From: Bacteroidales bacterium
Lineage (GTDB): Bacteria > Bacteroidota > Bacteroidia > Bacteroidales > P3
Direction of reading: 5' to 3'
NCBI GenBank assembly: GCA_017934545.1
Contig: JAGBJI010000001.1
Location: forward strand, 219,109-283,108
Length of the DNA stretch: 64,000 nt
The position numbers and the translations under genes were made by a program. The notes beneath the pieces were generated by a model. That model had not been told where the DNA came from. It saw nothing but the letters and a program-made list of their open reading frames with translations, and made no database searches. The number at the start of each line of letters is the position of its first letter. Position 1 is the first letter of the stretch. This document shows positions 7,621-61,180 of the stretch, piece after piece.

Positions 7621-7869
7621 TTCTGAAAAAACAAAATCACTGCCATAATTAATAAAAGCGTTTTTAGAAATAAAAATCCTGCAAGACGGTTTTGTAAACT
7701 CTGCAAAACCGTCTTGCAAGTGTTGCAAAACCGTTTTGCAGACATTACAAAACCGTTTTGCAGGGAATTGGTTTGCGAAAACATTTTTGCGAACTGTGGT
7801 TTAAGTTCTGTGTTTTCTGAAGAAATTGCGGAAATTTTGCAAAATCGGGGCAAAAAATTGAATTTTTTG
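7621..7869. repeat. 22-bp palindrome train 1 (GCAAAACCGTTTTGC type)
   Basis: Four 17-bp units start at 7680, 7702, 7724 and 7746, exactly 22 bp apart. Each is a variant of TGCAAAACCGTTTTGCA, and the 5-base linkers all differ (AACTC, AGTGT, GACAT). Weaker palindromes continue in phase on both sides: TTTTTAGAAA near 7665, TTTGCGAAA near 7776, AACTGTGGTT near 7797, TTTTCTGAAG near 7818, TTTTGCAAAA near 7840 and CAAAAAATTGAATTTTTTG at 7851-7869. The train fills most of the 620-base region between the divergent TonB-receptor gene and the tRNA/tuf operon. No gene is seen here. Confidence 0.75.
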
Positions 7870-8006
7870 AAAATTTAGACCCCGAAACAGTGTTTTACAA
7901 CCTATATTTTGATAAAATACGGTGCGTGACGGCAAACTCCGAAAGAATTTTTTCTCCTTAAAAAACAACGCTTTATAAAAAAAGAATAAAAAAAAACGTG
8001 ATTTTT

Positions 8007-8038
8007 TTTGGTGGGTATTCAAAAATGGTGTACTTTTG
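8007..8038 (+). promoter_or_regulatory. Promoter of the tRNA-tuf operon
   Basis: A -33 type TTTG at 8007-8010 and a -7 type TACTTTTG at 8031-8038 are separated by 20 bases, matching the Bacteroidota primary-sigma consensus. The first tRNA starts 28 bases after the -7 box. Confidence 0.8.
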
Positions 8039-8066
8039 CAAACGCCTTTTGAGAGGAATGTGAAAT

Positions 8067-8139
8067 GCCGATATAACTCAGTTGGTAGAGTAGCTGATTT
8101 GTAATCAGCCTGTCGGGGGTTCAAGTCCCTCTATCGGCT
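8067..8139 (+). tRNA. tRNA-Thr (anticodon TGT)
   Basis: Acceptor stem GCCGATA pairs with TATCGGC, discriminator T. Anticodon stem GCTGA/TCAGC holds loop TTTGTAA, giving anticodon TGT (threonine, ACA). The T arm contains GTTCAAGTC. CCA is not encoded. First gene of the operon. Confidence 0.95.
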
Positions 8140-8159
8140 CAAAGTAAAGTTCTTTTGAC

Positions 8160-8241
8160 GGGGAAGTCGCATAGTGGCAATTGCAACAGACTGTAAATCT
8201 GTCCTCTTCGGAGTTCGGTGGTTCGAGTCCACCCTTCCCCA
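8160..8241 (+). tRNA. tRNA-Tyr (anticodon GTA)
   Basis: Acceptor GGGGAAG pairs with CTTCCCC, discriminator A. Anticodon stem CAGA/TCTG with loop CTGTAAA gives GTA. The long variable arm (class II tRNA, 82 nt) fits tyrosine. Confidence 0.95.
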
Positions 8242-8259
8242 CTGAAAGTAAATTATAAT

Positions 8260-8332
8260 GCGGGAATAGCTCATTTGGTAGAGCGATAGCCTTCCAAGCT
8301 ATAGGTGGCGGGTTCGAGCCCCGTTTCCCGCT
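8260..8332 (+). tRNA. tRNA-Gly (anticodon TCC)
   Basis: Acceptor GCGGGAA pairs with TTCCCGC, discriminator T. Anticodon stem ATAGC/GCTAT with loop CTTCCAA gives TCC (glycine, GGA). Confidence 0.95.
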
Positions 8333-8415
8333 CAAAACAGGGCTGATGGATGCCTTTTTTATGAGAGGAGGAGTTGTGTTCGGCTCGTCCGTATCGTTGT
8401 AAATGTGAAGTCCAT

Positions 8416-8487
<72 letters not shown>

Positions 8488-8550
8488 CTTAACAGTTTGA
8501 AATAAAATAAAACGGAAATTAATTAATAAACATTTAAATAAACATAAGTT

Positions 8551-9738
8551 ATGGCAAAAGAGAAATTTGAGCGTACCAAACCACATGTTAATATCGGTAC
8601 AATCGGTCACGTTGACCACGGTAAGACAACTTTGACTGCAGCAATCACTAAAGTTTTGGCTGAAAAAGGTTTGTCAGAAGTTAAATCATTCGATTCAATT
8701 GACTCTGCTCCTGAAGAAAAGGAAAGAGGTATCACTATTAATACCGCTCACGTAGAGTATCAGACTGAAAACCGTCACTATGCGCATGTTGACTGTCCTG
8801 GTCACGCAGACTATGTAAAGAACATGGTTACGGGTGCAGCTCAAATGGACGGAGCAATCCTTGTTGTTGCTGCAACTGACGGTCCTATGCCTCAGACACG
8901 TGAACATATACTTCTTGCACGTCAGGTAGGTGTTCCTCGTATGGTTGTTTTCATGAACAAAGTTGACCTTGTTGACGACCCTGAGTTGTTGGATTTGGTT
9001 GAAATGGATATAAGAGATTTGTTGAGCTTCTATGAATTTGACGGTGACAATACTCCTATCATCCGTGGTTCTGCTCTTGGAGCATTGAACGGCGAACCTC
9101 AATGGGAAGAAAAAGTTGTTGAACTTATGGATGCAGTTGATAACTGGATTCCTCTTCCTCAAAGAGATGTTGACAAAGATTTCTTGATGCCTGTTGAAGA
9201 CGTATTCTCTATCACCGGACGTGGTACGGTTGCAACCGGAAGAATTGAAACCGGTATAATCAAAGTAGGTGACCCTGTTGACATCATCGGTATGGGTGCT
9301 GAAAAACTTAAATCAACGGTTACGGGAGTTGAGATGTTCAGAAAACTTCTTGACGAAGGAGAAGCTGGAGATAACGTAGGTTTGTTGTTGAGAGGTATAG
9401 ACAAAGACGAGATACGCAGAGGTATGGTTATCGCTAAACCTGGAACAATCACTCCTCATAAGAAATTCCAAGCTGAGGTTTATATCCTTAAGAAAGAAGA
9501 AGGCGGCCGTCACACTCCGTTCCAAAACAGATACCGTCCGCAGTTCTACTTCAGAACCACTGACGTTACGGGTGAAATATCATTGCCTGAAGGACGTGAG
9601 TTAGTTATGCCTGGTGACAACTTGACAATCACGGTTGAATTGTTGTCTGAAATTGCATTGAACCTTAACCTTCGTTTCGCTATCCGTGAGGGTGGAAGAA
9701 CTGTAGGTGCAGGTCAGGTAACTAAGATATTGGATTAA
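8551..9738 (+). CDS. tuf: Elongation factor Tu
   Basis: The GTPase that delivers aminoacyl-tRNA to the ribosome. 395 residues, full length. The G1 motif GHVDHGKT (about residues 19-26), switch region RGITINT, G3 DCPGH and G4 NKVD are intact; domains 2 and 3 follow, ending [10 protein letters not shown]. It sits between tRNA-Thr(GGT) and tRNA-Trp as in other Bacteroidota and is presumably read from the promoter at 8007-8038. Confidence 0.99.
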
Positions 9739-9753
9739 TGAATTATTTAGTAC

Positions 9754-9780
9754 GGGCGGCTTATTAAAAGTAAGTTGCCC
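9754..9780 (+). terminator. Weak hairpin between tuf and tRNA-Trp
   Basis: GGGCGGCTTA (9754-9763) pairs with TAAGTTGCCC (9771-9780) with two G-U pairs, followed by a short T-rich stretch. Probably a partial terminator or processing site, since tRNA-Trp and secE have no clear promoter of their own. Confidence 0.5.
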
Positions 9781-9787
9781 TTAATTT

Positions 9788-9858
9788 AGGGGTATGGTCT
9801 AATGGTAGAATAGCGGTCTCCAAAACCGTTGATGGGAGTTCGATTCTCTCTGCCCCTG
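9788..9858 (+). tRNA. tRNA-Trp (anticodon CCA)
   Basis: Acceptor AGGGGTA pairs with TGCCCCT (one G-U pair), discriminator G. Anticodon stem GCGGT/ACCGT with loop CTCCAAA gives CCA. Conserved position between tuf and secE. Confidence 0.95.
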
Positions 9859-9884
9859 CTTTTAAAAGTAAAAACTGTACAGAT

Positions 9885-10103
9885 ATGGCGAGTAAAGTGG
9901 TGAATTATGTTAAAAGTTGCTATGATGAGATGCAAAAAGTGTCATGGCCGACAATGGATGAGTTGCTTAACAGTACCATCGTTGTCTTTGTTGCATCATT
10001 AATCATAGCCTTGATTGTTTTTATTATGGACATTGCTTTCGGAGTTCATCCGACTATGTTCTGGAAAGGATTGTTAGGATATTTGTATCAGTTGATGTCA
10101 TAA
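9885..10103 (+). CDS. secE: Preprotein translocase subunit SecE
   Basis: Small essential clamp subunit of the SecYEG channel. 72 residues with one C-terminal membrane segment (TIVVFVASLIIALIVFIMDI) after the conserved amphipathic stretch DEMQKVSWPTMDEL. Lies 26 bases after tRNA-Trp and before nusG, the standard order. Confidence 0.96.
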   Translation: MASKVVNYVKSCYDEMQKVSWPTMDELLNSTIVVFVASLIIALIVFIMDIAFGVHPTMFWKGLLGYLYQLMS

Positions 10104-10232
10104 CTTAAAAAGTTTATTAATTTTTTATATCTTGCTTCCCAACTTATCCTCACGGATATTGAGATATAAAAAATCTTAATAATGTTTTATTGTTTTTTGA
10201 AGATATAATTAATCAATACTGTTGTAACTACT

Positions 10233-10778
10233 ATGTCTGGGCAACCGAAGAAATGGTATGTTGTTAAAGCAATTGCCGGAAAAGAAAGAAAAGCAAAAGA
10301 ATACATAGATAACGAAATCAATAGGTTGAACCTTACTGATTTAGTCAGCAATGTACTCATTCCTATTGAGAAGATTTATTCTGTAAGAAACGGAAAAAGA
10401 GTAAGCAAAGAACGTACTTTGTTTCCGGGTTATCTGTTTGTTGAAGCGTCTTTAGAAGGTGAAGTTGCTCATATAATTAAAAATATTCCTAATGTGCTTG
10501 ACTTTATCACCGAAAAGGGCGGACAGCCTATTCCGATGCAGGAAAGCGAAGTTAAAAGAATATTGAAAACAGTTGACAACAGCATTGACTCCAACGAAGA
10601 GATGGAAGAACACTTCATTGTAGGAGAGAATGTAAGAATAATTGACGGACCTTTTAAGAATTTTGACGGAGTTATTGAAGATGTCAATGAAGAAAAACAA
10701 AAACTTAAGGTTATCGTTAAAATATTCGGAAGAAAAACTCCTGTTGAATTGTCCAACTATCAAGTTGAGAAGAAGTAA
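10233..10778 (+). CDS. nusG: Transcription termination/antitermination protein NusG
   Basis: Binds the RNA polymerase clamp and couples elongation to translation or Rho. The NGN domain covers about residues 6-115 (KWYVVKAIAGKERKAKEYID, LFPGYLFVEA, PNVLDFI), and the C-terminal KOW domain about 125-180 (GENVRIIDGPFKNFDGVIEDV). 181 residues, full length. About 130 bases separate it from secE; nothing else is recognisable in that gap. Confidence 0.97.
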   Translation: MSGQPKKWYVVKAIAGKERKAKEYIDNEINRLNLTDLVSNVLIPIEKIYSVRNGKRVSKERTLFPGYLFVEASLEGEVAHIIKNIPNVLDFITEKGGQPIPMQESEVKRILKTVDNSIDSNEEMEEHFIVGENVRIIDGPFKNFDGVIEDVNEEKQKLKVIVKIFGRKTPVELSNYQVEKK

Positions 10779-10840
10779 TTGCATTTTCAAAAATATATAA
10801 AACGAAAATAATTTATTAATATTTAATCGCAATAATTAAA

Positions 10841-11263
10841 ATGGCAAAAGAAGTTGCAGGATTAATCAAATTGCAAATCAAAGGAGGTGCAGCAAATCCA
10901 GCTCCGCCTGTAGGACCTGCGTTAGGTGCAAAGGGTGTGAACATAATGGAATTTTGCAAGCAGTTTAATGCCAGAACACAAAAACAGGCAGGACAGATAT
11001 TGCCTGTTATAATCAATGTGTATACTGACAAGAGCTTTGATTTCGTTGTTAAAACTCCACCTGTTGTTGTGCAGATACTTGAAGCAACAAAAGCAAAAGG
11101 AGGTTCCGGTGAACCTAACCGTAAGAAAGTCGCTTCTTTGACGCAAGACCAAGTCCGTGCTATTGCTGAAGCAAAGATGGTGGACTTGAATTGCTTTACA
11201 GTGGAAAGCGCTATGCGTATGGTAGCCGGTACTGCACGCAGTATGGGAATAACGGTAAAATAA
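10841..11263 (+). CDS. rplK: 50S ribosomal protein L11
   Basis: Binds 23S rRNA in the GTPase-associated centre. 140 residues. Signature [21 protein letters not shown] at the N-terminus and SMGITVK at the end. Starts 62 bases after nusG. Confidence 0.98.
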
Positions 11264-11289
11264 TTTAAATAGAAGATTGCAAAAGAAAA

Positions 11290-11985
11290 ATGGCAAAACA
11301 ATCGAAGAAAACAGTAGAAGCCTTGAAAAAGTATGATTCTTCCAAAGAATATACGTTGCAGGAAGCTATAAAGGTTGTTAAAGATATAACTTTTACAAAC
11401 TTTGATGCATCTTTTGACTTGGACGTCCGTCTTGGTGTAGACCCGAGAAAGTCCAATCAAATGGTAAGAGGTACTGTAACATTGCCTCACGGTACAGGAA
11501 AAACCAAAAAGGTTCTTGTTCTTTGTACCGAGGATAAGGAAGAAGAAGCAAAGGCTGCCGGAGCCGATTATTTTGGATTGGATGAATATATAGACAAAAT
11601 AAAAGGCGGTTGGACGGATGTCGATGTAATAATAACAATGCCAAGCGTAATGCCAAAAATCGGTGCTTTGGGTAAAATATTAGGACCTCGCGGTCTTATG
11701 CCTAATCCGAAAACCGGCACAGTTACGATGGATATTGCAAAGGCAGTCCAAGAAGTAAAAGCCGGTAAAATAGATTTTAAAGTTGATAAGTATGGAATCA
11801 TTCATACAAGTGTAGCAAGAATGTCGTTTACGGAGGATAAAATCCTTGACAACACATTGGAAGTAATCCGTATGATAGAGAAATTGAAACCTACTACGGC
11901 AAAAGGCACATATATGAAGAGTATTTCCGTATCCTCAACGATGAGTCCCGGCGTTAAAGTAGATGCAAAATCTATTAGTAAATAA
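11290..11985 (+). CDS. rplA: 50S ribosomal protein L1
   Basis: L1-stalk protein that helps release tRNA from the E site and, in many bacteria, represses its own operon by binding the L11-L1 leader. 231 residues with the signatures [14 protein letters not shown] and [14 protein letters not shown]. Starts 26 bases after rplK. Confidence 0.98.
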
Positions 11986-12005
11986 TCTTTAGACAATATT
12001 ACAAC

Positions 12006-12524
12006 ATGAAGAAAGAAGATAAAGGAAGACTAATAGAACAAATCGGAGAGCAGATAAAAGAGTACCCGTACTTATATGTTGTAGATCTTGAAGGATTGGA
12101 TGCAAAAGATACTGCAGCATTAAGAAGAATGTGCTTTAAAAGAGAGATAAAACTTTTAGTTGTAAAAAATTCTTTTCTTAAAAAAGCGGTGGAAGGATTG
12201 GAAACGGATTATTCCGCAATCGTTCCTACATTCAAAGGACAGACTTCTTTGATGTTATCCAAAATGAACAATGCTCCTGCAAAATTAATAAAGGAATTCA
12301 GAAATCAAAAAGAGAAGAAAGAAAAACCTTTACTTAAATCCGCTTATGTAGAAGAAGAATTTTATATAGGTGACGAGCATTTGAATGAACTTGTTGCAAT
12401 AAAATCTAAGAATGAATTGGTTGCAGATGTTATTTCTGCATTATTATCACCGATACGGAATATTGTCAGTGGTTTGACCAATGAAGAACGTAAAGATAAG
12501 CAGCAGGAAAGTGTAGCAGAATAG
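12006..12524 (+). CDS. rplJ: 50S ribosomal protein L10
   Basis: Base of the L7/L12 stalk. 172 residues; the N-terminal rRNA-binding part has AALRRMCFKREIKLLVVKN and the C-terminal helix carries the L12-binding sites. Starts 20 bases after rplA. From here through rpoB, codons are visibly more A/T-ending than in most of the window. Confidence 0.97.
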   Translation: MKKEDKGRLIEQIGEQIKEYPYLYVVDLEGLDAKDTAALRRMCFKREIKLLVVKNSFLKKAVEGLETDYSAIVPTFKGQTSLMLSKMNNAPAKLIKEFRNQKEKKEKPLLKSAYVEEEFYIGDEHLNELVAIKSKNELVADVISALLSPIRNIVSGLTNEERKDKQQESVAE

Positions 12525-12565
12525 TTAAATTAAAGTTTTTGAAATTATTAAAAAATTAAAATAAA

Positions 12566-12937
12566 ATGGCAGATTTAAAAGCATTAGCAGAACAGCTATA
12601 TAATTTGACAATAAAAGAAGCTAAAGAACTTAGCGACATATTGAAAGATGAGTACGGAATTGAACCTGCAGTAGCAACAGTTGCAGTAGCAGCAGGTGAA
12701 GCAGGCGGTGCAGCAGCAGAAGAAAAAACATCGTTTGATGTAATCTTGGCAGAAGTAGGACCATCTAAATTACAAGTTGTAAAACATGTAAAAGACCTTT
12801 GCAGTTTAGGACTTAAAGAAGCAAAAGAATTAGTTGACAGCGCTCCTAAGCCATTGAAAGAAGGTGTATCAAAAGAAGAAGCAGAATCTTTGAAAGCTGC
12901 ATTGGAAGAAGCTGGTGCAAAGGTTGAAATTAAATAA
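12566..12937 (+). CDS. rplL: 50S ribosomal protein L7/L12
   Basis: Stalk protein that recruits translation factors. 123 residues: N-terminal dimerisation helices ([21 protein letters not shown]), an Ala/Gly/Glu-rich hinge ([11 protein letters not shown]), and the C-terminal domain with [13 protein letters not shown]. Followed by a hairpin before rpoB. Confidence 0.98.
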
Positions 12938-12964
12938 GACATTTCACCGCAATCAATTGATATT

Positions 12965-13004
12965 GGAACAGGAATACTCTCATTTAGTTGAGAGTATCTG
13001 TTCC
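12965..13004 (+). promoter_or_regulatory. Stem-loop between rplL and rpoB (attenuator or processing site)
   Basis: GGAACAG (12965-12971) and ATACTCTC (12974-12981) pair perfectly with GAGAGTAT (12990-12997) and CTGTTCC (12998-13004), leaving a two-base bulge and an 8-base loop. Only a broken T-rich run follows. In Escherichia coli an attenuator and an RNase III site occupy the same junction, lowering rpoBC relative to rplJL; a similar role is likely here. Confidence 0.7.
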
Positions 13005-13085
13005 TTATTTATATATAGTTACGGGACGTTAACGACCCATAAGCAGTAGAAGTAATTATTTTTAACCTTTTTAAATTTTAATACC

Positions 13086-21998: not shown

Positions 21999-22056
21999 AC
22001 AAACCATACCGCCCTTTAATGTTTAAATTCAGCCGAACGGTATTTAATTTTTGCCC

Positions 22057-22152
22057 TTTCAGAATTTGTTGTCAAAAAAAATAGGTTTTTTGCCTCAAAA
22101 AATCTGATTTTTTTAATCAAAAAACCTATTTTTTTTGAGATTACATTCAGAA
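22057..22152. repeat. 22-bp palindrome train 2 (TAGG type)
   Basis: Three A-tract/core/T-tract units (cores TAGG, TCTGA, CCTA) have centres 21-22 bp apart at about 22083, 22105 and 22127, flanked in phase by TTTCAGAA (22057-22064) and TTCAGAA (22146-22152). The outer two inner units form a perfect 21-bp inverted repeat (22072-22092 with 22118-22138). Core, right end and the following GGGGCGG closely match train 7 at 48189-48285. Lies between two codirectional genes. Confidence 0.75.
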
Positions 22153-22232
22153 GGGGCGGCGGCGTTGGGGCGTAGGGCGGAGAGAAAATGCAAAAGGGCG
22201 GCGGAAAAACTAAAAGACAACAGCGTGGGTTG

Positions 22233-31604: not shown

Positions 31605-31695
31605 TAAAACAGTATGCAAAAAACACATTTTTTGTACAATATGACAAAAATTGTACCGAAACCTGAGGTTTTTTGTTTCGGATAATAAAAAATTG

Positions 31696-31795
31696 TTTTC
31701 AGAAACTAAAAATAAAAAACATATGTATTTTTTCAAAAAAACATATGAATTTTAATCAAAAAACATATGTTTTTCGTTTCAAAAACATATGTTTT
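31696..31795. repeat. 22-bp palindrome train 3 (CATATG type)
   Basis: CATATG cores start at 31720, 31742, 31764 and 31786, exactly 22 bp apart, each inside an A-tract/T-tract palindrome, with TTTTCAGAAA at 31696-31705 in phase on the left. The segment 31714-31799 is the reverse complement of train 6 (44868-44950), essentially base for base. It lies downstream of atpG and upstream of the Sel1 operon. No gene is seen in 31605-31857. Confidence 0.8.
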
Positions 31796-31857
31796 TTATT
31801 TTTAGTTCCGCAATTAAAAAATTTTTAACTGTATTTTTGCCTCTGTAATATAAGGGA

Positions 31858-40682: not shown

Positions 40683-40740
40683 TTTTTTTTAATTAAAACC
40701 TATACTTAAATTTTTAAATTCTCAATCCGCAGAAAAAAAA

Positions 40741-40814
40741 CATATGTTTTTCGTTTCAAAAACATATGTTTTTTGATTAAAATACATATGTTTTTTTATT
40801 TTCTTTTCTGAAAA
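40741..40814. repeat. 22-bp palindrome train 5 (CATATG type)
   Basis: CATATG cores start at 40741, 40763 and 40785, exactly 22 bp apart, with TTTTCTGAAAA at 40804-40814 in phase on the right. Three inner units rather than four; linkers match those of trains 3 and 6. Lies between codirectional birA and permease genes; nothing else is seen in 40683-40905. Confidence 0.8.
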
Positions 40815-40886
40815 CAATTTTCAAAAACGGCATATGCACTGATTGAAACGCAAAAATTCATAAGTTTTTACCATAAAAACATATTC

Positions 40887-48130: not shown

Positions 48131-48151
48131 GAAAAATACAACGCCTTACGC

Positions 48152-48184
48152 AAAACCCTTTCCGCCTCAAGCGGAAAGGGTTTT
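48152..48184 (+). terminator. Terminator after rseP
   Basis: AAAACCCTTTCCGC (48152-48165) pairs perfectly with GCGGAAAGGGTTTT (48171-48184), loop CTCAA. Confidence 0.92.
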
Positions 48185-48188
48185 GCCT

Positions 48189-48285
48189 TTTCTGAAAGTA
48201 ATTCTGAAAAAACTACATTTTTTCACTCAAAAAAATAGGTTTTTTGCTTCAAAAAATCAGATTTTTTTAAGATTACTTTCAGAAG
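48189..48285. repeat. 22-bp palindrome train 7 (TAGG type)
   Basis: Five in-phase units: TTTCTGAAA (centre about 48193), then A/T-tract units with cores CTACA (48215), TAGG (48237) and TCAGA (48259), then CTTTCAGAAG (48281). The ends form a 13-bp perfect inverted repeat (TTCTGAAAGTAAT, 48190-48202, with 48272-48284). Core and right flank match train 2. Located between convergent rseP and the T9SS cargo gene. Confidence 0.78.
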
Positions 48286-48595
48286 GGGCGGTAACCGAAT
48301 GCGAAAGGGCGGCAGTATAATCGCAAAGGGCGGTGAAAGGGAGTATTAAAAGTACAATATATTGCGTAATTGCAGTGGGGTGTTGCGTTGAAATGACAAC
48401 AAATTGCGTCTTTGACGGATGTATGTTGAGGTATTGTGATTTTTAACAGTGATGATACCTTGCGGAGTTGTAATAATAAAAACGGTTGATTGTATAAAAG
48501 CACGGGCAGGGAATAGTTTTAATTGCATAAGGAAGTAAAGGAAAACAACGGGACGGTGAAACAACTGCGTAAGTGTTTGTAAATACTAAAAAAAC
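48286..48595. other. Intergenic stretch without recognisable gene
   Basis: About 310 bases between train 7 and the next terminator. It begins with short GGGGCGG/AAGGGCGG motifs shared with the flank of train 2. No open frame with coding character, promoter or RNA gene was recognised. Confidence 0.5.
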
Positions 48596-51550: not shown

Positions 51551-51673
51551 TTTTTTGCAAAAATAAAGATTTTTTTTCAAAAAACAATACATTTAAACCA
51601 TGCTTTGCAAAATTTTTTCTTCACTTCGTTTTTCTGCAAAACCGTCTTGCAACACTTGCAAAACGGTTTTGCA
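51551..51673. repeat. 22-bp palindrome train 8 (GCAAAACCGTTTTGC type)
   Basis: Two clear 17-bp units, TGCAAAACCGTCTTGCA at 51635 and TGCAAAACGGTTTTGCA at 51657, are 22 bp apart and share their core with train 1. Weaker A/T palindromes at about 51557 (TTTTTTGCAAAAA), 51579 and 51600 are in phase. The first of these overlaps the minus-strand -7 element TATTTTTG (51565 to 51558) of the T9SS cargo gene. Between thiF-like and cargo genes, both minus strand. Confidence 0.6.
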
Positions 51674-52454: not shown

Positions 52455-52569
52455 ACTCCTATATATATTATATGTATAAAATGAAAAAATAGGTTTTGCA
52501 AAAATACGAATAATTTTCAGACTTAAACGCAGCGGATTGTGAAAACAATTTTGCCGAACGTTGTTTTAA

Positions 52570-52704
52570 TTTTGCCGAATCAGAAAACACTTCTGAAAAA
52601 AGCACTTTTTTTCACTGAAAAAACCTGCTTTTTTGATGCAAAAAACCACTTTTTTTACCCGAAAAAAAGTGGTTTTTTTATTTCTCTTTTCTGAATCGGC
52701 AAAA
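52570..52704. repeat. 22-bp palindrome train 9 (CCACTT type) with 18-bp terminal inverted repeats
   Basis: Cores GCAC, CCTGC, CCAC and GTGG are centred at about 52603, 52626, 52648 and 52670 inside A/T tracts, with CAGAAA and TTTCTG ends in phase. The last two units form a perfect 17-bp inverted repeat. The outer ends, TTTTGCCGAATCAGAAAA (52570-52587) and TTTTCTGAATCGGCAAAA (52687-52704), are inverted repeats with one mismatch. Located between divergent genes. Confidence 0.78.
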
Positions 52705-52764
52705 ATGTTTTCGCAAAAGGCATTTTTGTTTTGCCTTTCGGCTTTTGAAATATATTGGGTTAAA

Positions 52765-52798
52765 TTTGCGTGTATTACGTTTTTTTTCACTAACTTTG
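52765..52798 (+). promoter_or_regulatory. Promoter of envC
   Basis: TTTG at 52765-52768 and TAACTTTG at 52791-52798, 22 bases apart; the gene starts 26 bases further on. Confidence 0.7.
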
Positions 52799-52824
52799 CC
52801 CTTTGAACGTAAAAAAGCGTAAAA

Positions 52825-54117: not shown

Positions 54118-54154
54118 AAATCATAACTGTATAACATATAAAAACTATCAACCA

Positions 54155-56206
54155 ATGTTAAAAAAGATAAATTTATTTACACTTGCAATTGTTTTGTGCA
54201 GTGTTTGTTTTTCGCAGCAAAGCCCTGCCAAGTGGTCTTTCCGCACAAACAAGATAAACGATTCGGTAGCGGATTTAATCATGCAGTGCAATCTGCCTGA
54301 CGGATGGCACATATATTCCCAAAAAACCAAGGGAACGGAATTGCCTATTGAGTTTACGTTCCAACCGTCTGCACAGTACCAACGGTTAGGCGGCGTTCAG
54401 GAACCGCCGTACAAAGCCAAATACGACAAATTTGCGAAAGATACCACCCGATATTTTGAAAATACGGCGGTATTTCATCAAAAAATAAAGGTAAAGATCG
54501 ATAAAGATTTCAAAGTAAAAGGTTCCGTCAACTTCCAATTGTGTGAAAACGGTTCGTGTATTCCGCCCGACGACGTTGAATATACGTTTGACGTCAAAGG
54601 CAACCCGAATATAACCGCCGCTGTAGATGAAACGACGGAAGAAACCCCTACTCAAACGGCGGTAACCGAGCCTTTGCCGAATGCGGAAACCGCAACCGAA
54701 GTCATAGACCAAGCAAAGAGCATGGGCGATACGCAGGATTTGGCTGACAAATCGTTGCTTACTGTGTTTTTAATATCGTTCGGCGTGGGTCTGATAACGC
54801 TTTTGACCCCGTGCGTGTTCCCTATGATTCCTATGACCATATCTTTCTTCTTGCACGGTAAGAAAACAAACCGTCAGGGCAGGAAACAGGCTTACTTTTT
54901 CGGCTTATCAATAGTTTTAATCTTTGCCGTGCTGGGTTTGCTTCTGACTTTGATTTTCGGAAAGGACGCCATGTATATAATATCCACACATTGGATACCG
55001 AATGTTCTGTTTTTCGTCATTTTTATGGTCTTTGCACTTTCGTTTTTCGGACTGTTTGAGATAACCATGCCGAGCAAATGGGTGAACAAATCCGACAAAG
55101 AAAGCGAGAAAGGCGGACTTTTGGGGGCGTTTTTCATAGCTTTGACAACGGTATTGGTGTCTTTCTCATGCACGGGTCCCATTTTGGGAGCGGCATTGGT
55201 GGAGATGGCTTCGGGAAGCAGCAATTCGTTCATCTTCTTTATATCCATGTTGGGCTTTGCCATAGGTTTTGCATTGCCTTTTACCCTTTTGGCAATGTTT
55301 CCTTCGTTTTTGAAGAACCTGAAGAGCGGTTCGTGGCTTAACAGCGTGAAAATAGTGTTCGGATTTTTGGAAATAGCTTTGGGATTGAAGTTTTTGATGG
55401 TTGCAGACCAAGCACAGAATTGGGGAATACTGACACGGACGGTGTATCTTTGCATTTGGATAGTCATATTTGCCATGATAGGCTTCTATTTGTTAGGAAA
55501 ACTTAAATTCAAGGGCGATTCGGAGTTGCAGCATATAACAGTGCCGAGATTGTTTTTAGCAATAGTTTCATTCTCCTTTACAATATATATGATACCCGGA
55601 CTTTGGGGCGCTCCGTTGAGTGCTATATCGGGCTATTTGCCGCCGTTGACTTCACAGGAATATAACATTGAAAAAATTATTGTTGAAAACGGCGGAACGG
55701 TATCTGCAAACACTTCAACAGACGGATTCCCTGTACAAAGGAAATATGCAGACAAATTGGACGGACATGTTCCTGTGGGATTCAAAGCCTTTTTTGATTT
55801 AGCCGAAGCACAGCAATACGCCAAGAAAGTGGGAAAACCTTTGTTTTTAGACTTCACGGGCAAGAGTTGTGCGAATTGCCGCGAGATGGAAACGGCGGTG
55901 TGGAGCAATCCTACCGTAAAGCAGATGATTCAAAACGATTATGTCTTGGTTTCTTTGTATTGCGACGAAAACACGATAGCACTTCCGCAGGACGAATGGA
56001 CGGAAATGAACGGCAAAACCATAAAAACTCTCGGCAGACGCAATCTTAACTATCAGATAGAGAAGTTTCACGCCAACGCACAGCCGTTGTACGTTCTTAT
56101 GGACGGAGATGGCAACCTTTTGACCGACAAACCGCAGCCGTACGACAAGAACGTGCAGAATTTTATTGACTTTTTGAATAAAGGACTTTCTAATTTTAAG
56201 AAGTAG
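54155..56206 (+). CDS. dsbD: Thiol:disulfide interchange protein DsbD-like
   Basis: Carries electrons from cytoplasmic thioredoxin to periplasmic thiol proteins. 683 residues in three parts: signal peptide plus an N-terminal DsbD alpha-like beta-sandwich (about 20-150; CQLCENGSCIPPDDV), a membrane domain of about eight helices (about 200-480; LITLLTPCVFPMIPMTISFF and SFSCTGPILGAALVEM carry the redox cysteines), and a C-terminal thioredoxin-like domain (about 540-683; FLDFTGKSCANCREMETAVW with CANC). The exonuclease gene starts directly after its stop codon. Confidence 0.92.
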   Translation: MLKKINLFTLAIVLCSVCFSQQSPAKWSFRTNKINDSVADLIMQCNLPDGWHIYSQKTKGTELPIEFTFQPSAQYQRLGGVQEPPYKAKYDKFAKDTTRYFENTAVFHQKIKVKIDKDFKVKGSVNFQLCENGSCIPPDDVEYTFDVKGNPNITAAVDETTEETPTQTAVTEPLPNAETATEVIDQAKSMGDTQDLADKSLLTVFLISFGVGLITLLTPCVFPMIPMTISFFLHGKKTNRQGRKQAYFFGLSIVLIFAVLGLLLTLIFGKDAMYIISTHWIPNVLFFVIFMVFALSFFGLFEITMPSKWVNKSDKESEKGGLLGAFFIALTTVLVSFSCTGPILGAALVEMASGSSNSFIFFISMLGFAIGFALPFTLLAMFPSFLKNLKSGSWLNSVKIVFGFLEIALGLKFLMVADQAQNWGILTRTVYLCIWIVIFAMIGFYLLGKLKFKGDSELQHITVPRLFLAIVSFSFTIYMIPGLWGAPLSAISGYLPPLTSQEYNIEKIIVENGGTVSANTSTDGFPVQRKYADKLDGHVPVGFKAFFDLAEAQQYAKKVGKPLFLDFTGKSCANCREMETAVWSNPTVKQMIQNDYVLVSLYCDENTIALPQDEWTEMNGKTIKTLGRRNLNYQIEKFHANAQPLYVLMDGDGNLLTDKPQPYDKNVQNFIDFLNKGLSNFKK

Positions 56207-56758
56207 GTGTTCTCTTTTACGGCGGTGGATTTTGAAACGGCTGCGGGCTATATCCCATGTTCTGTGGGTATAGCCGTAGTTGAAGACAACAAGATAACGG
56301 AAGTAAGGACGGAATTGATAAAACCCATTTGTTTTCCTTATTTCCATTGGTATGCACAGCGTATTCACGGCATTTACAAGCAGGATGTGGAAAACGCTCC
56401 TACGTTTGAAGAACTTTGGCCTGAGATTAAACACTATTTTAGCGACACTATGCTGATAGCACACAACGCCGCGTTTGATATAAACGTGCTTCGGCGGACG
56501 CTTGCTCACTACCAACTGCCGCGGCCTTACGCCCGGTACATGTGTTCCTATATTTTGGCAAAGAAAACATGGAAAAACAATGCTAAATTTTCGCTGGATT
56601 TTCTTTCCAATCAAGAAAACATTCCGCTCAACCATCACCATGCCGATTCCGATGCGGCGGCTTGTGCCATGCTTTTGTTAAGAGAAGCGGAGGTTTTGGG
56701 TTGTCAGGATTTTGCACAGTTGAAACATCTCACACAATTACGCTCTTACAGATTATGA
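56207..56758 (+). CDS. DnaQ-like 3-prime to 5-prime exonuclease
   Basis: 183 residues, starting at GTG immediately after the TAG stop of the dsbD-like gene. DEDDh exonuclease motifs are intact: Exo I AVDFETA, Exo II AHNAAFDINVL, Exo III HHADSDAAAC (the H and D of DEDDh). A stand-alone proofreading-type or RNA/DNA-repair exonuclease, related to the epsilon subunit but short of its polymerase-binding tail. The next gene overlaps by four bases. Confidence 0.9.
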   Translation: MFSFTAVDFETAAGYIPCSVGIAVVEDNKITEVRTELIKPICFPYFHWYAQRIHGIYKQDVENAPTFEELWPEIKHYFSDTMLIAHNAAFDINVLRRTLAHYQLPRPYARYMCSYILAKKTWKNNAKFSLDFLSNQENIPLNHHHADSDAAACAMLLLREAEVLGCQDFAQLKHLTQLRSYRL

Positions 56759-57702
56759 TAAATCTTTATACGGAAGTAAAGCCTGAAGAAAGCGGGTTTA
56801 AAATCAATCATAAAAGCCACATTATGCTCATCGGTTCATGTTTTACCGATGAAATAGGGGAGCGTTTCGCAATCCACGGGTTCAATATCGGAAAAAATCC
56901 GTTCGGAATATTGTATAACCCCGCAAGTATCGCCATTTGTTTGAACAGAATAACGGATAAGGAATATTTTGATAAAAAAGATTTGATTAAAAGCGGGGAA
57001 TATTTTTATGCTTTTTCGTGTCACGGCGATTACAGGGGAGAAACCGAAGAGCAATGCCTTGAAAAAATAAACCGAAGCATAGACGAAAACCATGAGTTTT
57101 TGAAAACAACGGATACAATCATCATTACCTTGGGTTCGGCATGGACTTACAGATACAAACCTGCGGATTATTTGATGGGCAATTGCCACAAGATAGACTC
57201 CAAACTGATAGAACGCCGGATGTTGACGGTTGAACAGACGGTGCAGTGCATGATGCAGGCAACAGAAAACGTAAAGCAGAAAATTAATTCGGACATGCGT
57301 TTTATTTTTACTCTTTCGCCCGTACGGCATTGGCGAGAAGGTTGGCATGACAATGCGGTTTCCAAGGCCGTATTGTATTTGGCGGTTGACAAAATGATAA
57401 AAGAATTTTGCGGCAATGCGGCATATTTTCCTTCGTACGACATTGTGACGGACGAACTGCGTGATTACAGGTTTTATGAACGTGATTTGCTGCATGTCAA
57501 TCAACTTGCAGTGGATTGCATATGGGAAAAATTTTCCGACACCTATTTTTCGGAAAAGACAAAATACGTTAACGGAGAATATAGAAAACTTTGGCTGATG
57601 AAAAACCACCGTCCGTTGAACCCAAGCAGCGAAGCGTACGGAAAACACAAGCAAAAAACGGCGGAAACCGAAGCCAAAATACAGTCTTTGCAGGATTGGT
57701 GA
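56755..57702 (+). CDS. GSCFA domain protein
   Basis: 315 residues. ATG 56755 overlaps the exonuclease stop as ATGA, which supports it over the frame opening at 56662 inside the exonuclease gene. The family signature IMLIGSCFTDEIGERF gives the Gly-Ser-Cys-Phe motif, followed by NPFGILYNPASIA, TIIITLGSAWTYRY, FTLSPVRHWREGWHDNAVSK and SYDIVTDELRDYRFYERDLL. GSCFA proteins belong to the SGNH-hydrolase-like group and may be esterases acting on glycans; the substrate is unknown. Confidence 0.88.
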   Translation: MINLYTEVKPEESGFKINHKSHIMLIGSCFTDEIGERFAIHGFNIGKNPFGILYNPASIAICLNRITDKEYFDKKDLIKSGEYFYAFSCHGDYRGETEEQCLEKINRSIDENHEFLKTTDTIIITLGSAWTYRYKPADYLMGNCHKIDSKLIERRMLTVEQTVQCMMQATENVKQKINSDMRFIFTLSPVRHWREGWHDNAVSKAVLYLAVDKMIKEFCGNAAYFPSYDIVTDELRDYRFYERDLLHVNQLAVDCIWEKFSDTYFSEKTKYVNGEYRKLWLMKNHRPLNPSSEAYGKHKQKTAETEAKIQSLQDW

Positions 57703-57729
57703 AAATTAATGTATAACAAAGGCAAAATT

Positions 57730-57784
57730 CTTTTCAGAAAAGAAAAAATTAGATTCAGAAAAGAATTTTTTCTTTTCTGAAAAG
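57730..57784. repeat. Palindrome train 11 (CTTTTCAGAAAAG only)
   Basis: A perfect 21-bp inverted repeat (57730-57750 with 57764-57784). It can also be read as three CTTTTCAGAAAAG-like units starting at 57730, 57751 and 57772, 21 bp apart. These are the same palindrome that bounds the other trains, here without array-specific inner units. It may serve as the terminator of the dsbD-exonuclease-GSCFA operon. Confidence 0.65.
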
Positions 57785-57817
57785 AGTTTGGGTGAAATGT
57801 GATTGAAAAAAAATTTG

Positions 57818-58585
57818 ATGACTATGCAAAAAAATATAAAGTTGGAAATATGCGTTTACAACGCCGAATCGTGCCTTAAAGCACAGGAAGCGGGAGCGGA
57901 CAGGGTGGAGTTGTGTGCCTCAATGCAGGAAGGAGGACTGACGCCTTCGCTGTCTATGATAGAGTTTGCCCGCCGTCGCTTGAGCATTGATACAATGGTG
58001 ATGATTCGTCCGCGGGGAGGCGATTTTCTATATTCCGACGATGAGTTTGAGATTATGAAAAACGATATTGAGATGTGCAGACGTATCGGCGTTAGCGGAG
58101 TTGTCTTCGGTATACTGACACCCGAGGGCAGGGTGGACGCAGAGCGTAACGCCATACTCGTAAAAGCGGCGGGCAATATGCAGACATGTTTCCACAGAGC
58201 GATAGATATGTGCCGTGATTACTGCCAGGCAGCGAGCGACATTGCCTCTTTGAATTTTACGCGTGTGCTTACCTCTGGGGCAAAACAAAACGCATTGCAG
58301 GGAGCGGACAATATAGCCAAGATAAAACATATTCTGCAAGGCAAAGTTGAGGTTATGGCGGGCAGCGGAGTGAATCCAATGAACATAAAAGACATTTACT
58401 TAAAATCCGATGCGGATGCGTTCCATTTTTCAGCCAAGACACTGAAACCATCTGCGATGCAATTCAAAAACCCTGACGTTTCAATGGGTTGCAATGCAGG
58501 TGCGGACGAATACAGTATGTATACGGCGGACAAAAACCAAATATCGCAGGCCGTAAATGTTATTAAATCGTTGTCAGTACAATAA
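57818..58585 (+). CDS. cutC: CutC family protein
   Basis: A TIM-barrel protein named for copper homeostasis, though its biochemical role is unsettled. About 255 residues; ATG 57818 or 57824 is preferred over an upstream TTG at 57803. Family signatures KLEICVYNAESCLKAQEAGA, RVELCASMQEGGLTPS, VMIRPRGGDFLYSDDEFEIM, FHRAIDMCRD, RVLTSGA and VMAGSGVNP are all present. Monocistronic as far as can be seen. Confidence 0.93.
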   Translation: MTMQKNIKLEICVYNAESCLKAQEAGADRVELCASMQEGGLTPSLSMIEFARRRLSIDTMVMIRPRGGDFLYSDDEFEIMKNDIEMCRRIGVSGVVFGILTPEGRVDAERNAILVKAAGNMQTCFHRAIDMCRDYCQAASDIASLNFTRVLTSGAKQNALQGADNIAKIKHILQGKVEVMAGSGVNPMNIKDIYLKSDADAFHFSAKTLKPSAMQFKNPDVSMGCNAGADEYSMYTADKNQISQAVNVIKSLSVQ

Positions 58586-58630
58586 TTATTGCAATAAAGC
58601 GTTTATTTCTTATTATAAAACAGTTTAACG

Positions 58631-59593
58631 ATGAACGGAAAATATTTAATACCTCTGTTGTTGGGTGCAATTGCCTGTTTTGTTTTCGCAGGTTGTGACA
58701 ATTTTGAGGGCAACCAACAGATACCGTCTTACATTAAAGTCAAAGGGTTCAACCTTGTAGCCGATGACAACTTGGGATTGGGCTTTGTACAGGACGAAGG
58801 ATTTTTGAGTAATGAGATTTCGGACGTATGGGTTTTCGTTACCAAGAACGGCAAACAGCAGTTTATGGGAGCGTATACACTTAAAGACAGCGGCACGATG
58901 AACATTCCCGTGTTGGAAGAGGGAATAAGCTACGTGGAACTGCGTCCGGGGATAAAATACAACGGAATGAACGGTACCAGAGAGTATTACAGTTTCTATA
59001 CACGGTGTTACGATACCGTTGATTTGCAGCCCGGACAGGTTGTGGAAATCCCTGTGCAGAATATAAGCTACAATTCGTTGGCGTCAATATCGCAGGCGTA
59101 TATGTTTGAAGACAATTACATTCCTTTTGAAAACCTGCCTACCGTGTCGGACGATTACCCTGATTACATGCACTTGGTTTCGGGCGACAGCGTTTCTTAC
59201 GGCAGCAAATGCGCTGCACTTTACAGTTCGTCGTCTTCCGATATTTACAAAGTTTTGATGCGTGACAGTATAAGTTGTGCCAATCACAACGCCATGATAT
59301 TGGAGATGGACTACCATTCAAACATAGATTTTGAAGTGGGATTGTACGGCAAGATGATGTCGGCGGGCAACGAATATTACATAAGTTGCATGCGGATATT
59401 GGCAAACGACAACCCTGACTATGCAGCGGGCGACAGACGCAATTGGAAAAAGATGTACATAATCTTGGGTAAGGTTTGGGGACAGTTGAACTACAATGCG
59501 TTTAAACTGTGGCTGCAACCTGTTAACAACAAAGGTCTGCAGGACGGATTTGTCCATATAGACAACATAAAGATAATCCATTTCCCTGAATAA
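58631..59593 (+). CDS. Lipoprotein of unknown function
   Basis: 320 residues: signal YLIPLLLGAIACFVFAGC with lipobox FAGC. The mature part is beta-rich: residues about 35-145 look like an immunoglobulin-like module (FLSNEISDVWVFVTKNGKQQ, PVLEEGISYVELRPGIKYNG), followed by a carbohydrate-binding-like sandwich (about 170-320; DSVSYGSKCAALYSSSSSDI). No family name can be given with confidence. Located 28 bases before the sugar-phosphate transferase and probably cotranscribed with it. Confidence 0.7.
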   Translation: MNGKYLIPLLLGAIACFVFAGCDNFEGNQQIPSYIKVKGFNLVADDNLGLGFVQDEGFLSNEISDVWVFVTKNGKQQFMGAYTLKDSGTMNIPVLEEGISYVELRPGIKYNGMNGTREYYSFYTRCYDTVDLQPGQVVEIPVQNISYNSLASISQAYMFEDNYIPFENLPTVSDDYPDYMHLVSGDSVSYGSKCAALYSSSSSDIYKVLMRDSISCANHNAMILEMDYHSNIDFEVGLYGKMMSAGNEYYISCMRILANDNPDYAAGDRRNWKKMYIILGKVWGQLNYNAFKLWLQPVNNKGLQDGFVHIDNIKIIHFPE

Positions 59594-59621
59594 CGAACTT
59601 TGCTTTTTTGCTTTCTTTGCT

Positions 59622-61043
59622 ATGAACAAAACACTCCGGAGCCTTGCTTACATCATTTCAGACTATCTTGCCGCCGTTGCGGCGTGGGTTTTGTTTTTCT
59701 TTTTCAGAAAACTGACCATAGAAAACAACAGCTTTGACGACATAAACCTTGTCTTTGCCGACGTAAACCTTTACAAAGGAATAGTGTTCATACCTTTGTT
59801 TTGGTTGTGTTTGTATTGGTGTGCGGGAGAATACAGAAACGTGTACAAAAAATCGCGTCTGAAAGATTTTCTTCAGACCGTGATAGAAAGTTTTGCTGGA
59901 GTTATCGTTTTGTTTTTCGCTTTTCTTTTGGACGATTATATCTCTACTTACAAAAACTATTACTTTACTTTTGCTCTTTTGTTGGTGTTGCATTTTTTCA
60001 TCACCTATATTCCGCGTCTGATACTGACTTGGTCAACGGTAATCCGCGTCCATAACGGCAAAATAGGCTTTCCTACGCTTATGATAGTGTCCGACGGACA
60101 AAAAGCGGAGAGTTTGTACCGCTCCATAACCAACCAAGAGATGTCTTCTGGTTACAAATTTACGGGCTATATAACCCCTGAAGGCAACAATTACACAATG
60201 TTGGACAGCCATATGCCGCTTTTGGGCAGTTTTTCGGACTTACAACAAATAATAGAGCAAAAACAGATTGAAGAGATAATAGTGGTTTTGGACCGCAAAG
60301 ACGAAAACGAGATATACAATATTATCTTTTCCGTCCAAAATCCCGACATTGAAATGTTTATGCCTTCCGACCGCAAGGATTTGTTGACGGGAAGCATCAA
60401 ACTGAAAGCCATTTTTTCCGTACCTTTGGTGCGTATATCCCAACAGATGATGTCCCCGTGGGAGTTTTCGCTGAAAAGAATTTTTGACGTTGTGGTTTCA
60501 TTGGTGTCAATGACGGTGTTGATACCTGTTTATATAGCAGTTGCGGTGATTATCAAGTCAACGTCCAAAGGTCCGGTGTTCTATGCCCAGCAACGTATAG
60601 GCAAAAACGGCAAACCGTTTATGATGTACAAGTTCCGTTCCATGTATACCGATGCCGAAAAAGACGGTCCTATGCTTTCCAACGGCGATAACGACCCGCG
60701 TATCACGCCTTTCGGACGGTTTATGCGTAAAGTCAGGTTGGACGAAACGCCGCAGTTTTTCCATGTCTTGCGTGGTGAGATGAGTATGGTCGGACCGCGT
60801 CCCGAAAGACAGTATTTTATTGACAAAATAGTTCAGAAAGCACCGGAATACAAACTGTTGCAAAAAATCAAACCCGGCATGACATCGTGGGGACAGGTCA
60901 AATTCGGATACGCCGATACGGTAGACCAAATGGTGGAACGCCTGCAATACGACTTGCTTTACTTGGAAAATATGTCCGTTGCAACAGATATAAAAATATT
61001 GCTTTACACCTTTATCATTATTTTTGAAGGACGGGGAAAATAA
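59622..61043 (+). CDS. Initiating sugar-phosphate transferase (polyprenyl glycosylphosphotransferase)
   Basis: Starts exopolysaccharide or glycan synthesis by moving a sugar phosphate onto undecaprenyl phosphate. 473 residues: four to five N-terminal membrane helices, a Rossmann-like middle (about 140-250), and the bacterial sugar transferase domain from about 285 (KRIFDVVVSLVSMTVLIPVY, GPVFYAQQRIGKNGKPFMMY, KFRSMYTDAE, VRLDETPQFFHVLRGEMSMV, GPRPER, KPGMTSWGQV). WbaP/WcaJ-like layout. No further glycosyltransferases follow in the window. Confidence 0.93.
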   Translation: MNKTLRSLAYIISDYLAAVAAWVLFFFFRKLTIENNSFDDINLVFADVNLYKGIVFIPLFWLCLYWCAGEYRNVYKKSRLKDFLQTVIESFAGVIVLFFAFLLDDYISTYKNYYFTFALLLVLHFFITYIPRLILTWSTVIRVHNGKIGFPTLMIVSDGQKAESLYRSITNQEMSSGYKFTGYITPEGNNYTMLDSHMPLLGSFSDLQQIIEQKQIEEIIVVLDRKDENEIYNIIFSVQNPDIEMFMPSDRKDLLTGSIKLKAIFSVPLVRISQQMMSPWEFSLKRIFDVVVSLVSMTVLIPVYIAVAVIIKSTSKGPVFYAQQRIGKNGKPFMMYKFRSMYTDAEKDGPMLSNGDNDPRITPFGRFMRKVRLDETPQFFHVLRGEMSMVGPRPERQYFIDKIVQKAPEYKLLQKIKPGMTSWGQVKFGYADTVDQMVERLQYDLLYLENMSVATDIKILLYTFIIIFEGRGK

Positions 61044-61061
61044 ACCTGTCTTGCGGCTGCG

Positions 61062-61180
61062 TTTTCAGAAACGAAAAATAAAAAACATATGTTTTTTTAA
61101 CGAAAAACATATGTTTTTTTATTAAAATTCATATGTTTTTTTGAAAAAATACATATGTTTTTTTTAATTCTTTTCAGAAT
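61062..61180. repeat. 22-bp palindrome train 10 (CATATG type)
   Basis: CATATG cores start at 61085, 61107, 61129 and 61152 (22, 22, 23 bp), bounded in phase by TTTTCAGAAA (61062-61071) and TTTTCAGAAT (61171-61180). Same orientation as train 6 and nearly identical to it. Lies between the transferase and higBA. Confidence 0.8.

What the first reader, a model, noticed from the sequence alone, without database searches (positions are those of the whole stretch)
7621..61180. Eleven intergenic trains of palindromes with a 21-23 bp period
Seen directly: eleven intergenic regions (7621, 22057, 31696, 36316, 40741, 44868, 48189, 51551, 52570, 57730, 61062) contain 2 to about 10 short palindromes of the form A-tract, core, T-tract, whose centres are spaced 21-23 bp (many exactly 22). 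Inner palindromes agree within a train but differ between trains; the outer units are often TTTTCAGAAA or its complement. Linkers of about 5 bases mostly differ. Trains lie at convergent, codirectional and divergent junctions. Two helical turns put every unit on the same DNA face, and alternating A- and T-tracts about 11 bp apart should bend DNA. This suggests binding sites for a cooperative architectural protein, or a dispersed element whose inner units evolve in concert. I know of no named family like this.
Basis: partly seen in the sequence, partly recalled or inferred. Interest (0 to 1): 0.85.

Follow-up and report, generated by a model that had tools for sequence, protein, structure and literature searches.

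The report
Two-turn-spaced intergenic palindrome arrays
Between many genes of this gut-type bacterium lie short trains of look-alike DNA sites spaced about two turns of the double helix apart, and its relatives keep the spacing but use different site words, which points to an unrecognised kind of DNA-bound boundary or a fast-changing dispersed element.

Summary
All eleven trains exist; the window's intergenic DNA has 7 trains of 3+ units against 0.005 per shuffle. The 604 kb held of this 2.38-Mb genome have 78 such trains, in types: CATATG x3-4; three mixed-word units flanked by up to three GCC/GGC units per side; CCACT/CCTGC x3-4 with one per side.

New: sampled congeners carry 21-22 bp arrays with mostly other words; one other family shows them on direct view. 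Spacing is kept, vocabulary replaced. Here arrays lie between transcription units: 3% within 60 bp of a start codon (25% expected), 66 of 87 starts with a -7 motif between array and start (significant also in G001, not in four others).

Mirrored arms of one element do not covary, against selected hairpins. No Y1, DDE_Tnp_1 or rve transposase was found. Curvature is not general. Promoter phasing failed on held-out DNA; selection on sequence was not shown.

Best reading: sites for proteins lining one helix face at transcription-unit boundaries. Function is inferred.

The parts
7674..7768 (.). train of 4 units TGCAAAACCGTTTTGCA-like, 22-bp steps, in a junction between divergent predicted genes
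22005..22205 (.). type B element: three inner units (ATAGG, TCTGA, CCTAT cores) with GCC units left and GGC units right on the same grid
31676..31806 (.). type A train: four CATATG units, outer TTTTCAGAAA
36316..36423 (.). train of TCACAC/GTCACA-core units, about 22-bp steps, convergent junction; a terminator-like hairpin lies just before it (read by eye)
40733..40818 (.). type A train: three CATATG units, outer TTTTCTGAAAA
44863..44970 (.). type A train: four CATATG units between divergent genes (UDP-MurNAc ligase-like and dxr)
48150..48186 (+). strong intrinsic-terminator-like hairpin directly before the next train (not part of it)
48189..48292 (.). type B element after rseP: CTACA, ATAGG, TCAGA cores, outer GCC/GGC units
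51635..51673 (.). two units TGCAAAACCGTCTTGCA / TGCAAAACGGTTTTGCA, 22 bp apart
52572..52702 (.). type C element: four inner units (GCACT, CCTGC, CCACT, AGTGG) with GCCGAATCAG ... CTGAATCGGC outer units
57724..57790 (.). about three TTTTCAGAAAA/TTTTCTGAAAA-type units, 21-bp steps
61076..61182 (.). type A train: four CATATG units, outer TTTTCAGAA-type units

Best explanation
The trains are arrays of binding sites for one or a few sequence-specific DNA-binding proteins (probably dimers, since many units have dyad symmetry) that bind side by side, one per two helical turns and all on one face. They sit in the gaps between transcription units: after the terminator of the upstream gene and before the promoter of the next, or between two divergent promoters, so they most likely act on DNA, not RNA, as boundary or anchoring sites. 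Each species has its own small vocabulary of site words, largely replaced between species of one genus, presumably together with the specificity of the protein; step length and unit design stay. Shown: the arrays, their numbers, spacing, layout, placement in this genome, recurrence with other words, lack of arm covariation. Inferred: the protein, cooperative binding, the boundary role, co-evolution.
For: Intergenic loci at lags 21+22 are 16-42 times the mean of other lags in 9 of the 12 family genomes of which 40 kb or more were held (G000, G001, G002, G005, G006, G008, G009, G011, G024), mostly with different words. Type B elements have GCC at 29-30, 50-51 and 71-72 bp outside the first inner centre in 25, 19 and 20 of 25 on the left, and mirrored in 25, 19 and 21 of 25 on the right, with no further peak over the threshold; type C one each side in 11 of 11. 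A handful of core words recur in both orientations; linkers too are a limited set. Arms of one element are no more alike than arms of different elements, so each unit obeys a class consensus. Placement in G000: arrays in 23 of 36 divergent, 41 of 85 co-directional and 9 of 21 convergent junctions of 100+ bp; array edge within 60 bp of a start in 3% against 25% for random placement (mean distance p 0.015); -7 motif 4.97 per kb between array and start, 0.66 in arrays, 1.63 beyond; 66 of 87 starts; G001 agrees (0 of 16 within 60 bp, p 0.005). Of 41 co-directional junctions with an array, 11 have a strong terminator by my scan: in 10 one lies before the array, in 1 inside, in 1 after. Unit dyad symmetry is above shuffles in G000, G009, G001, G248. 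In sister species one length difference is a 45-bp block, about two units. One junction shared by G000 and G001 has an array in both, with different words.
Against: No protein was identified. Dyad symmetry is not clearly above chance in G002, G006, G008, G013, G016 and G024. Placement away from starts is not significant in G248, G002, G008 and G009. Between sister species G006 and G002 arrays diverge no slower than other intergenic DNA (66/991 vs 611/10670, or 103/1650 vs 574/10011) and a shortage of indels is not significant (p 0.13, 0.84). A test for substitutions staying within the vocabulary looked strong (105 of 149 against 559 of 1107 elsewhere) but is biased; corrected it gives 44 of 74, p 0.13. 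Helical phasing with the promoter was strong in the first 61 cases (R 0.45) but absent in 15 held-out cases, and a start-codon control also gave p 0.004. G248 holds several unrelated words, hard for one protein to read. Avoiding promoters is also expected of any tolerated insertion. Enrichment is weaker in G018, G013 and G021 (5.1, 2.8, 2.4 times), and 20-kb samples of same-family G020 and G023 show none.
Confidence: 0.45

Rival explanations
1. A non-autonomous dispersed element (MITE or BIME-like) whose internal repeats happen to be two turns long, spread by a transposase or by recombination and tolerated only between transcription units.
For: High copy number (615 CATATG sites); recurrent linkers among CATATG copies (71 linkers, 24 distinct); class-level inverted outer units; occupancy differs between species: in G002-G009 four shared junctions have an array in one genome only and none in both; BrickBuilt precedent.
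Against: No Y1_Tnp, DDE_Tnp_1 or rve hit in the genome although the control genomes ring (other transposase classes not searched); left and right arms of one copy are not more alike than those of different copies; does not explain unrelated words at the same spacing in relatives; 0 hits in viral contigs for two exact patterns.
Confidence: 0.25
2. DNA-shape or topology element: A/T-tract arrays bend DNA or absorb supercoiling between promoters, with little sequence specificity.
For: Predicted curvature above shuffles in G000, G009, G001, G002, G006; placement between promoters.
Against: Curvature not raised in G005, G008, G024, G248; recurrent core words, linkers and outer units are not needed for bending.
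Confidence: 0.13
3. RNA or single-stranded DNA hairpins: transcribed or extruded long stems acting as terminators or stabilisers.
For: Elements fold better than shuffles, mean z -5.5 (B, 14 elements), -6.4 (C, 11), -5.6 (A, 14), both strands; first and last inner units of type B match slightly better within elements, p 0.03.
Against: No covariation of the outer arms; arrays lie outside likely transcripts and most terminators found lie before them; frequent at divergent junctions.
Confidence: 0.08
4. Neutral minisatellites made by slippage and template switching, without function.
For: Arrays diverge about as fast as other intergenic DNA; a length change of about two units in sister species.
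Against: Other periods are rare; words in both orientations on one grid and the GCC/inner/GGC layout do not follow from slippage.
Confidence: 0.09

Closest known systems
BrickBuilt, 23-nt minisatellite MITE of Porphyromonas gingivalis (PMC4596501; abstract, sections 5 and 8, first part of section 7, and search passages seen)
   Same: Bacteroidales; intergenic; tandem units about two turns long; species-specific; predicted to fold; its consensus unit has dyad symmetry above most shuffles (0.82 vs mean 0.64, 4% of shuffles as high)
   Different: 19 copies with up to 22.8 units inside leader/tail with IS5-like ends; here about 129 trains of 3+ units per Mb (78 in 604 kb), short and often mixed-word, no match to the 23-nt consensus within 4 mismatches in 604 kb, no DDE_Tnp_1 hit
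REP/BIME palindromic repeats (PMC2817692, PMC3733652, PMC12306157; search passages seen)
   Same: short palindromic units, mosaic, intergenic, high copy, proposed protein sites; PMC3733652 reports CGTC-type REPs, which lack a dedicated transposase, also from Bacteroidetes
   Different: no Y1_Tnp hit here; no GTAG or CGTC enrichment at 156 train ends (2 and 3); unit step 21-22 bp; often placed before promoters
Phased A-tract periodicity of bacterial nucleoids (PMC3940949, PMC3431218, PMC4132750: listings with abstract starts only)
   Same: A- and T-tracts about 11 bp apart in the A/T-framed trains of this genome
   Different: discrete repeated words at a 21-22 bp step in intergenic DNA, not a diffuse genome-wide signal
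Tandem operators of dimeric or oligomeric regulators such as ArgR boxes or Fis site arrays (recalled, no call)
   Same: palindromic sites about 21 bp apart on one face
   Different: hundreds of loci and several vocabularies per genome

Membership tests
BrickBuilt MITE | 23-nt unit AGAYCATARTATCCTCTCRTRTG | tested here: not met
   0 sites within 4 mismatches in 604 kb of G000, best 6 mismatches, same as reversed control
BrickBuilt MITE | IS5-like terminal repeats / IS5-type helper transposase | tested here: inconclusive
   DDE_Tnp_1 absent but other IS5-type families not searched; three TIR words with up to 1 mismatch 5, 2, 2 against reversed controls 1, 4, 3 in 604 kb
BrickBuilt MITE | intergenic tandem units of about two turns | tested here: met
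   83 arrays intergenic, 7 in predicted coding DNA of 464 kb; spacing
REP/BIME | RAYT (Y1) transposase in the genome (GTAG type) | tested here: not met
   PF01797 absent in G000, 5 of 14 control genomes ring
REP/BIME | GTAG or CGTC tag at one end of the palindrome | tested here: not met
   2 and 3 of 156 train ends (random 14-mers 3.7% and 9.0%); of 153 linkers one form, seen once, holds GACG and none GTAG/CTAC
REP/BIME | binding of gyrase, IHF or Pol I | not testable with these tools
   needs bench work
classical MITE | paired terminal inverted repeats related within each copy, target-site duplication | tested here: inconclusive
   arms not related within copies; duplications not tested for lack of empty sites
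structured RNA | covarying stem | tested here: not met
   outer arms p 0.38 (B), 0.60 (C), 0.97 (A); inner first/last units p 0.03 (B), 0.11 (C), 1.0 (A); no Rfam match in the window besides 5 tRNAs
intrinsically curved DNA element | curvature above composition | tested here: inconclusive
   raised in G000, G009, G001, G002, G006, not in G005, G008, G024, G248 (wedge table recalled)

The most novel reading that the evidence does not exclude
A previously unrecognised chromosome-organising system of Bacteroidales: proteins that coat one helical face over arrays at about half of the larger gene junctions (73 of 142 of 100+ bp here), in which the step of two turns is conserved while the DNA words and protein specificity are replaced from species to species, as in an arms race or drift-driven code change.
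Probability: 0.3. Interest if true: 0.92.

Novelty: new variant of a known kind. Interest (0 to 1): 0.72.

Why it matters
If the reading holds, a group of bacteria marks the gaps between its transcription units with short protein arrays whose geometry is conserved while the sequence is not, a bacterial parallel to fast-evolving satellite-binding systems. It would give a way to find chromosome-boundary proteins by comparative genomics, and it may explain BrickBuilt of P. gingivalis as one case of a wider class. Even if the arrays prove to be tolerated mobile debris, a two-turn step kept through replacement of the words needs an explanation.

Tried and rejected
Rejected or unresolved: (1) Promoter phasing: strong at first (61 cases, best period 10.7 bp, R 0.45), but 12 and then 15 held-out cases gave V -0.14 and 0.03; two-unit trains (6 cases), G009 (4) and G001 (5) gave nothing significant, and the start-codon control was itself p 0.004. 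Not claimed. (2) Vocabulary-preserving substitutions: one search is biased because one allele is ancestral; the corrected test gives 45 of 74, 44 of 74 and 41 of 70 for three word lengths, p 0.08-0.19. (3) Indel shortage p 0.13 or 0.84 by threshold. (4) Array position in more distant congeners: too few shared junctions (both genomes 1 in G000-G001 and 1 in G001-G013; one genome only 1 in G001-G008, 4 in G002-G009, 4 in G006-G009, 1 in G004-G013). (5) Half-site code for core words: the registration of A-runs is ambiguous; words, not free half-site combinations, recur. (6) The A3x4 lag-21 survey of 198 Bacteroidales genomes is a mixed signal: by my hand count 18 of 198 had 50 or more matches at lag 21 and at least 4 times the lag-24 control; of those sampled outside the family, G248 was clear, G177 held 7-bp microsatellites, G206 and G105 a mixture, G166 and G153 no intergenic array in small samples, and G238 none listed but 4 loci at lag 21. 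(7) Literature: seven topic searches found no paper on such arrays beyond BrickBuilt; most subscription papers are not held.

First gene calls by simple ORFs were replaced by a hexamer-based finder; the low convergent share (4 of 26) became 9 of 21. Both finders are home-made. The genome record is flagged with 8.1% contamination; trains lie on many contigs (type C pattern on 10 of 14), so I do not think this matters.
Full report
Observation. The window lies in a 2.38-Mb genome of 14 contigs, a Bacteroidales by its kin (a named relative with 68% dxr identity is 'Bacteroidales bacterium' RGIG4461, roe deer omasum). In 200 dinucleotide shuffles of the window's intergenic DNA there are on average 0.34 trains of two or more A4+/core/T4+ units and 0.005 of three or more; the window has 10 and 7. 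In 464 kb (window plus 400 kb) 62 trains of three or four units stand against none in five shuffles, and 166 neighbouring unit pairs lie 21-23 bp apart against 0.6 per shuffle. All DNA held later, 604 kb, has 78 such trains. Genome-wide, the CATATG 16-mer alone has 615 sites with up to two mismatches against 34 for its reversed control, and a type C pattern hits 37 times on 10 of 14 contigs against 0.

Anatomy. Trains fall into classes. Type A: three or four CATATG units, often with outer TTTTCAGAAA-type units. Type B: three inner units whose cores come mostly from a small set (ATAGG, TCACA, TCAGA, AACTAT, CCACA, in either orientation), flanked on each side by up to three GCC-bearing units that face outward; in 25 elements with enough flank (of 27 listed) GCC lies 29-30, 50-51 and 71-72 bp from the first inner centre in 25, 19 and 20 on the left, and mirrored in 25, 19 and 21 on the right, and no further GCC peak passes the threshold within 270 bp. 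Type C: three or four inner units (mostly CCACT and CCTGC) with one GCC unit on each side in 11 of 11. The whole type B element is thus up to about nine units, 200 bp, with dyad symmetry. Linkers are a limited set as well (40 distinct of 82, 76.8 expected). Further kinds occur in the window (TGCAAAACCGTTTTGCA, TCACAC and TTTTCAGAAAA units).

Not a selected hairpin. The elements fold better than shuffles as RNA (mean z -5.5, -6.4 and -5.6 for B, C and A), but that follows from unit symmetry. The telling test is whether left and right arms of one element match each other better than arms of different elements. They do not: 32.8 against 32.5 of 60 (type B, 25 elements, p 0.38), 29.4 against 29.8 (C, 11, p 0.60), 24.0 against 25.2 (A, 23, p 0.97); only the first and last inner units of type B give p 0.03. 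Each unit follows a class consensus, not its partner.

Relatives. The CATATG word is near background in the 13 congeners searched, with one exception, G009 (68 against 9 in the control; the others 0.8 to 2.3 times their control). Yet sampled congeners have their own trains at 21-22 bp: TATTTTATTAATCTGCGAGAT in G001, TAAAACGAAGAGATAGAAAAT in G008 (and similar words in the named relative, L170), TTAATCACTCACACTAATTTA in G002/G006, TTAAAACGGCG/CGCCGTTTTAA in G005, A/T-framed AGAG and ACTGT words in G009. G001 and G009 share the A/T frame with our genome, so vocabularies overlap between the nearest species. Counting intergenic loci per lag, 21+22 exceed the mean of other lags (13-19 and 25-40) by 24 (G000), 29 (G001), 17 (G008), 21 (G002), 25 (G006), 20 (G009), 17 (G011), 16 (G005), 42 (G024), 5.1 (G018), 2.8 (G013) and 2.4 (G021) fold; these are the 12 family genomes with 40 kb or more held. 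Smaller samples are mixed: G004, G010, G014, G016, G015 and G026 show 1 to 4 loci each at lags 21-22, G020 and G023 and several samples from other families none. In another family, G248, with 47-51% GC, 17 arrays of period 20-22 were listed, many palindromic, such as AAAAGGCCGGCAGCCTTTT, TTTACGACC..GGTCGTAAA and GAGGTACCTC; its period-20 arrays are 10-mer repeats and not of this kind. The order-wide pattern survey is only a hint (see Tried and rejected).

Placement. With a hexamer-based gene finder, arrays lie in 23 of 36 divergent, 41 of 85 co-directional and 9 of 21 convergent junctions of at least 100 bp; 83 arrays are intergenic and 7 in predicted coding DNA. Array edges come within 60 bp of a start codon in 3% of 87 cases, against 25% for random placement in the same junctions. 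The Bacteroidota -7 motif TAnnTTTG (seen as the consensus in one passage of PMC7366714) is found between array and start at 66 of 87 starts; its density is 4.97 per kb there, 0.66 in arrays, 1.63 on the far side and 3.6 in array-free junctions. Of 41 co-directional junctions with an array, 11 have a strong terminator by my scan: before the array in 10, inside in 1, after in 1; of 44 without an array 9 have one. 48150-48186 is an example. The usual order is therefore stop, terminator where seen, array, promoter, start, or promoter, array, promoter. In the other genomes tested the distance to starts is significant in G001 (16 starts, p 0.005) and not in G248 (15), G002 (9), G008 (11) or G009 (20), though the -7 density is highest between array and start in all six genomes.

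Turnover. Sister species G006 and G002 (95.9% identical over 92 kb) keep the arrays at the same places: all 12 arrays listed for G006 lie in DNA aligned to G002, though a stricter junction count gives 7 with an array in both and 5 in one genome only. One length difference is a 45-bp block, about two units. Divergence in arrays is no lower than in other intergenic DNA. Purifying selection on the words is not shown. Between more distant congeners two shared junctions have arrays in both genomes, one of them clear and with different words (G000-G001), and most others in one genome only; the numbers are too small for a rule.

Machinery. The genome has no Y1_Tnp, DDE_Tnp_1 or rve hit (control genomes ring), so neither a RAYT nor the common IS5-type helper is at hand; other transposase classes were not searched. 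Two exact patterns gave no viral contig.

Judgement. What is conserved is the step of two helical turns, often dyad symmetry, and in this genome the place between transcription units; what changes is the sequence. Sites for proteins on one face of the helix explain this best (0.45). A dispersed element with a two-turn internal repeat is the main rival (0.25). Bending, hairpins and neutral minisatellites each leave something out. Membership in RAYT-type REP and in BrickBuilt proper fails on tested features (RAYT, tags, unit sequence), though it may work like a BIME or be a cousin of BrickBuilt in kind.

Noticed in passing
L177 15347-15475, L179 446-501, L193 16712-16822, L195 1302-1412 (G248): Dispersed 10-bp satellite arrays (GAGTTCYTAT-like) at several intergenic loci of G248, on top of the 21-22 bp arrays.
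   Followed up: no
L152 13723-13889 and L157 13719-13953 (G006/G002): Compound arrays of two word families (GTCACGAATAGCACTAACTCG and TGGATATCGCAATCCA); G002 has 45 bp more, about two units, than G006.
   Followed up: partly
L059 and L074-L076 (G013): Intergenic lag signals at 15 and 51 bp outweigh the 21-bp signal in this congener.
   Followed up: no
L101 (G054): Intergenic lag 23/46 repeat at two loci in 20 kb, the same unit length as BrickBuilt.
   Followed up: no
window 59732-59771: About two copies of a 21-bp repeat inside a predicted gene (CTTTGACGACATAAACCTTGT).
   Followed up: no
   Followed up: no
rpoC of several family members: Single stop codons reported inside RpoC matches in G015, G023, G078, G082, G085 and G090; probably match ends or assembly errors, not checked.
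   Followed up: no
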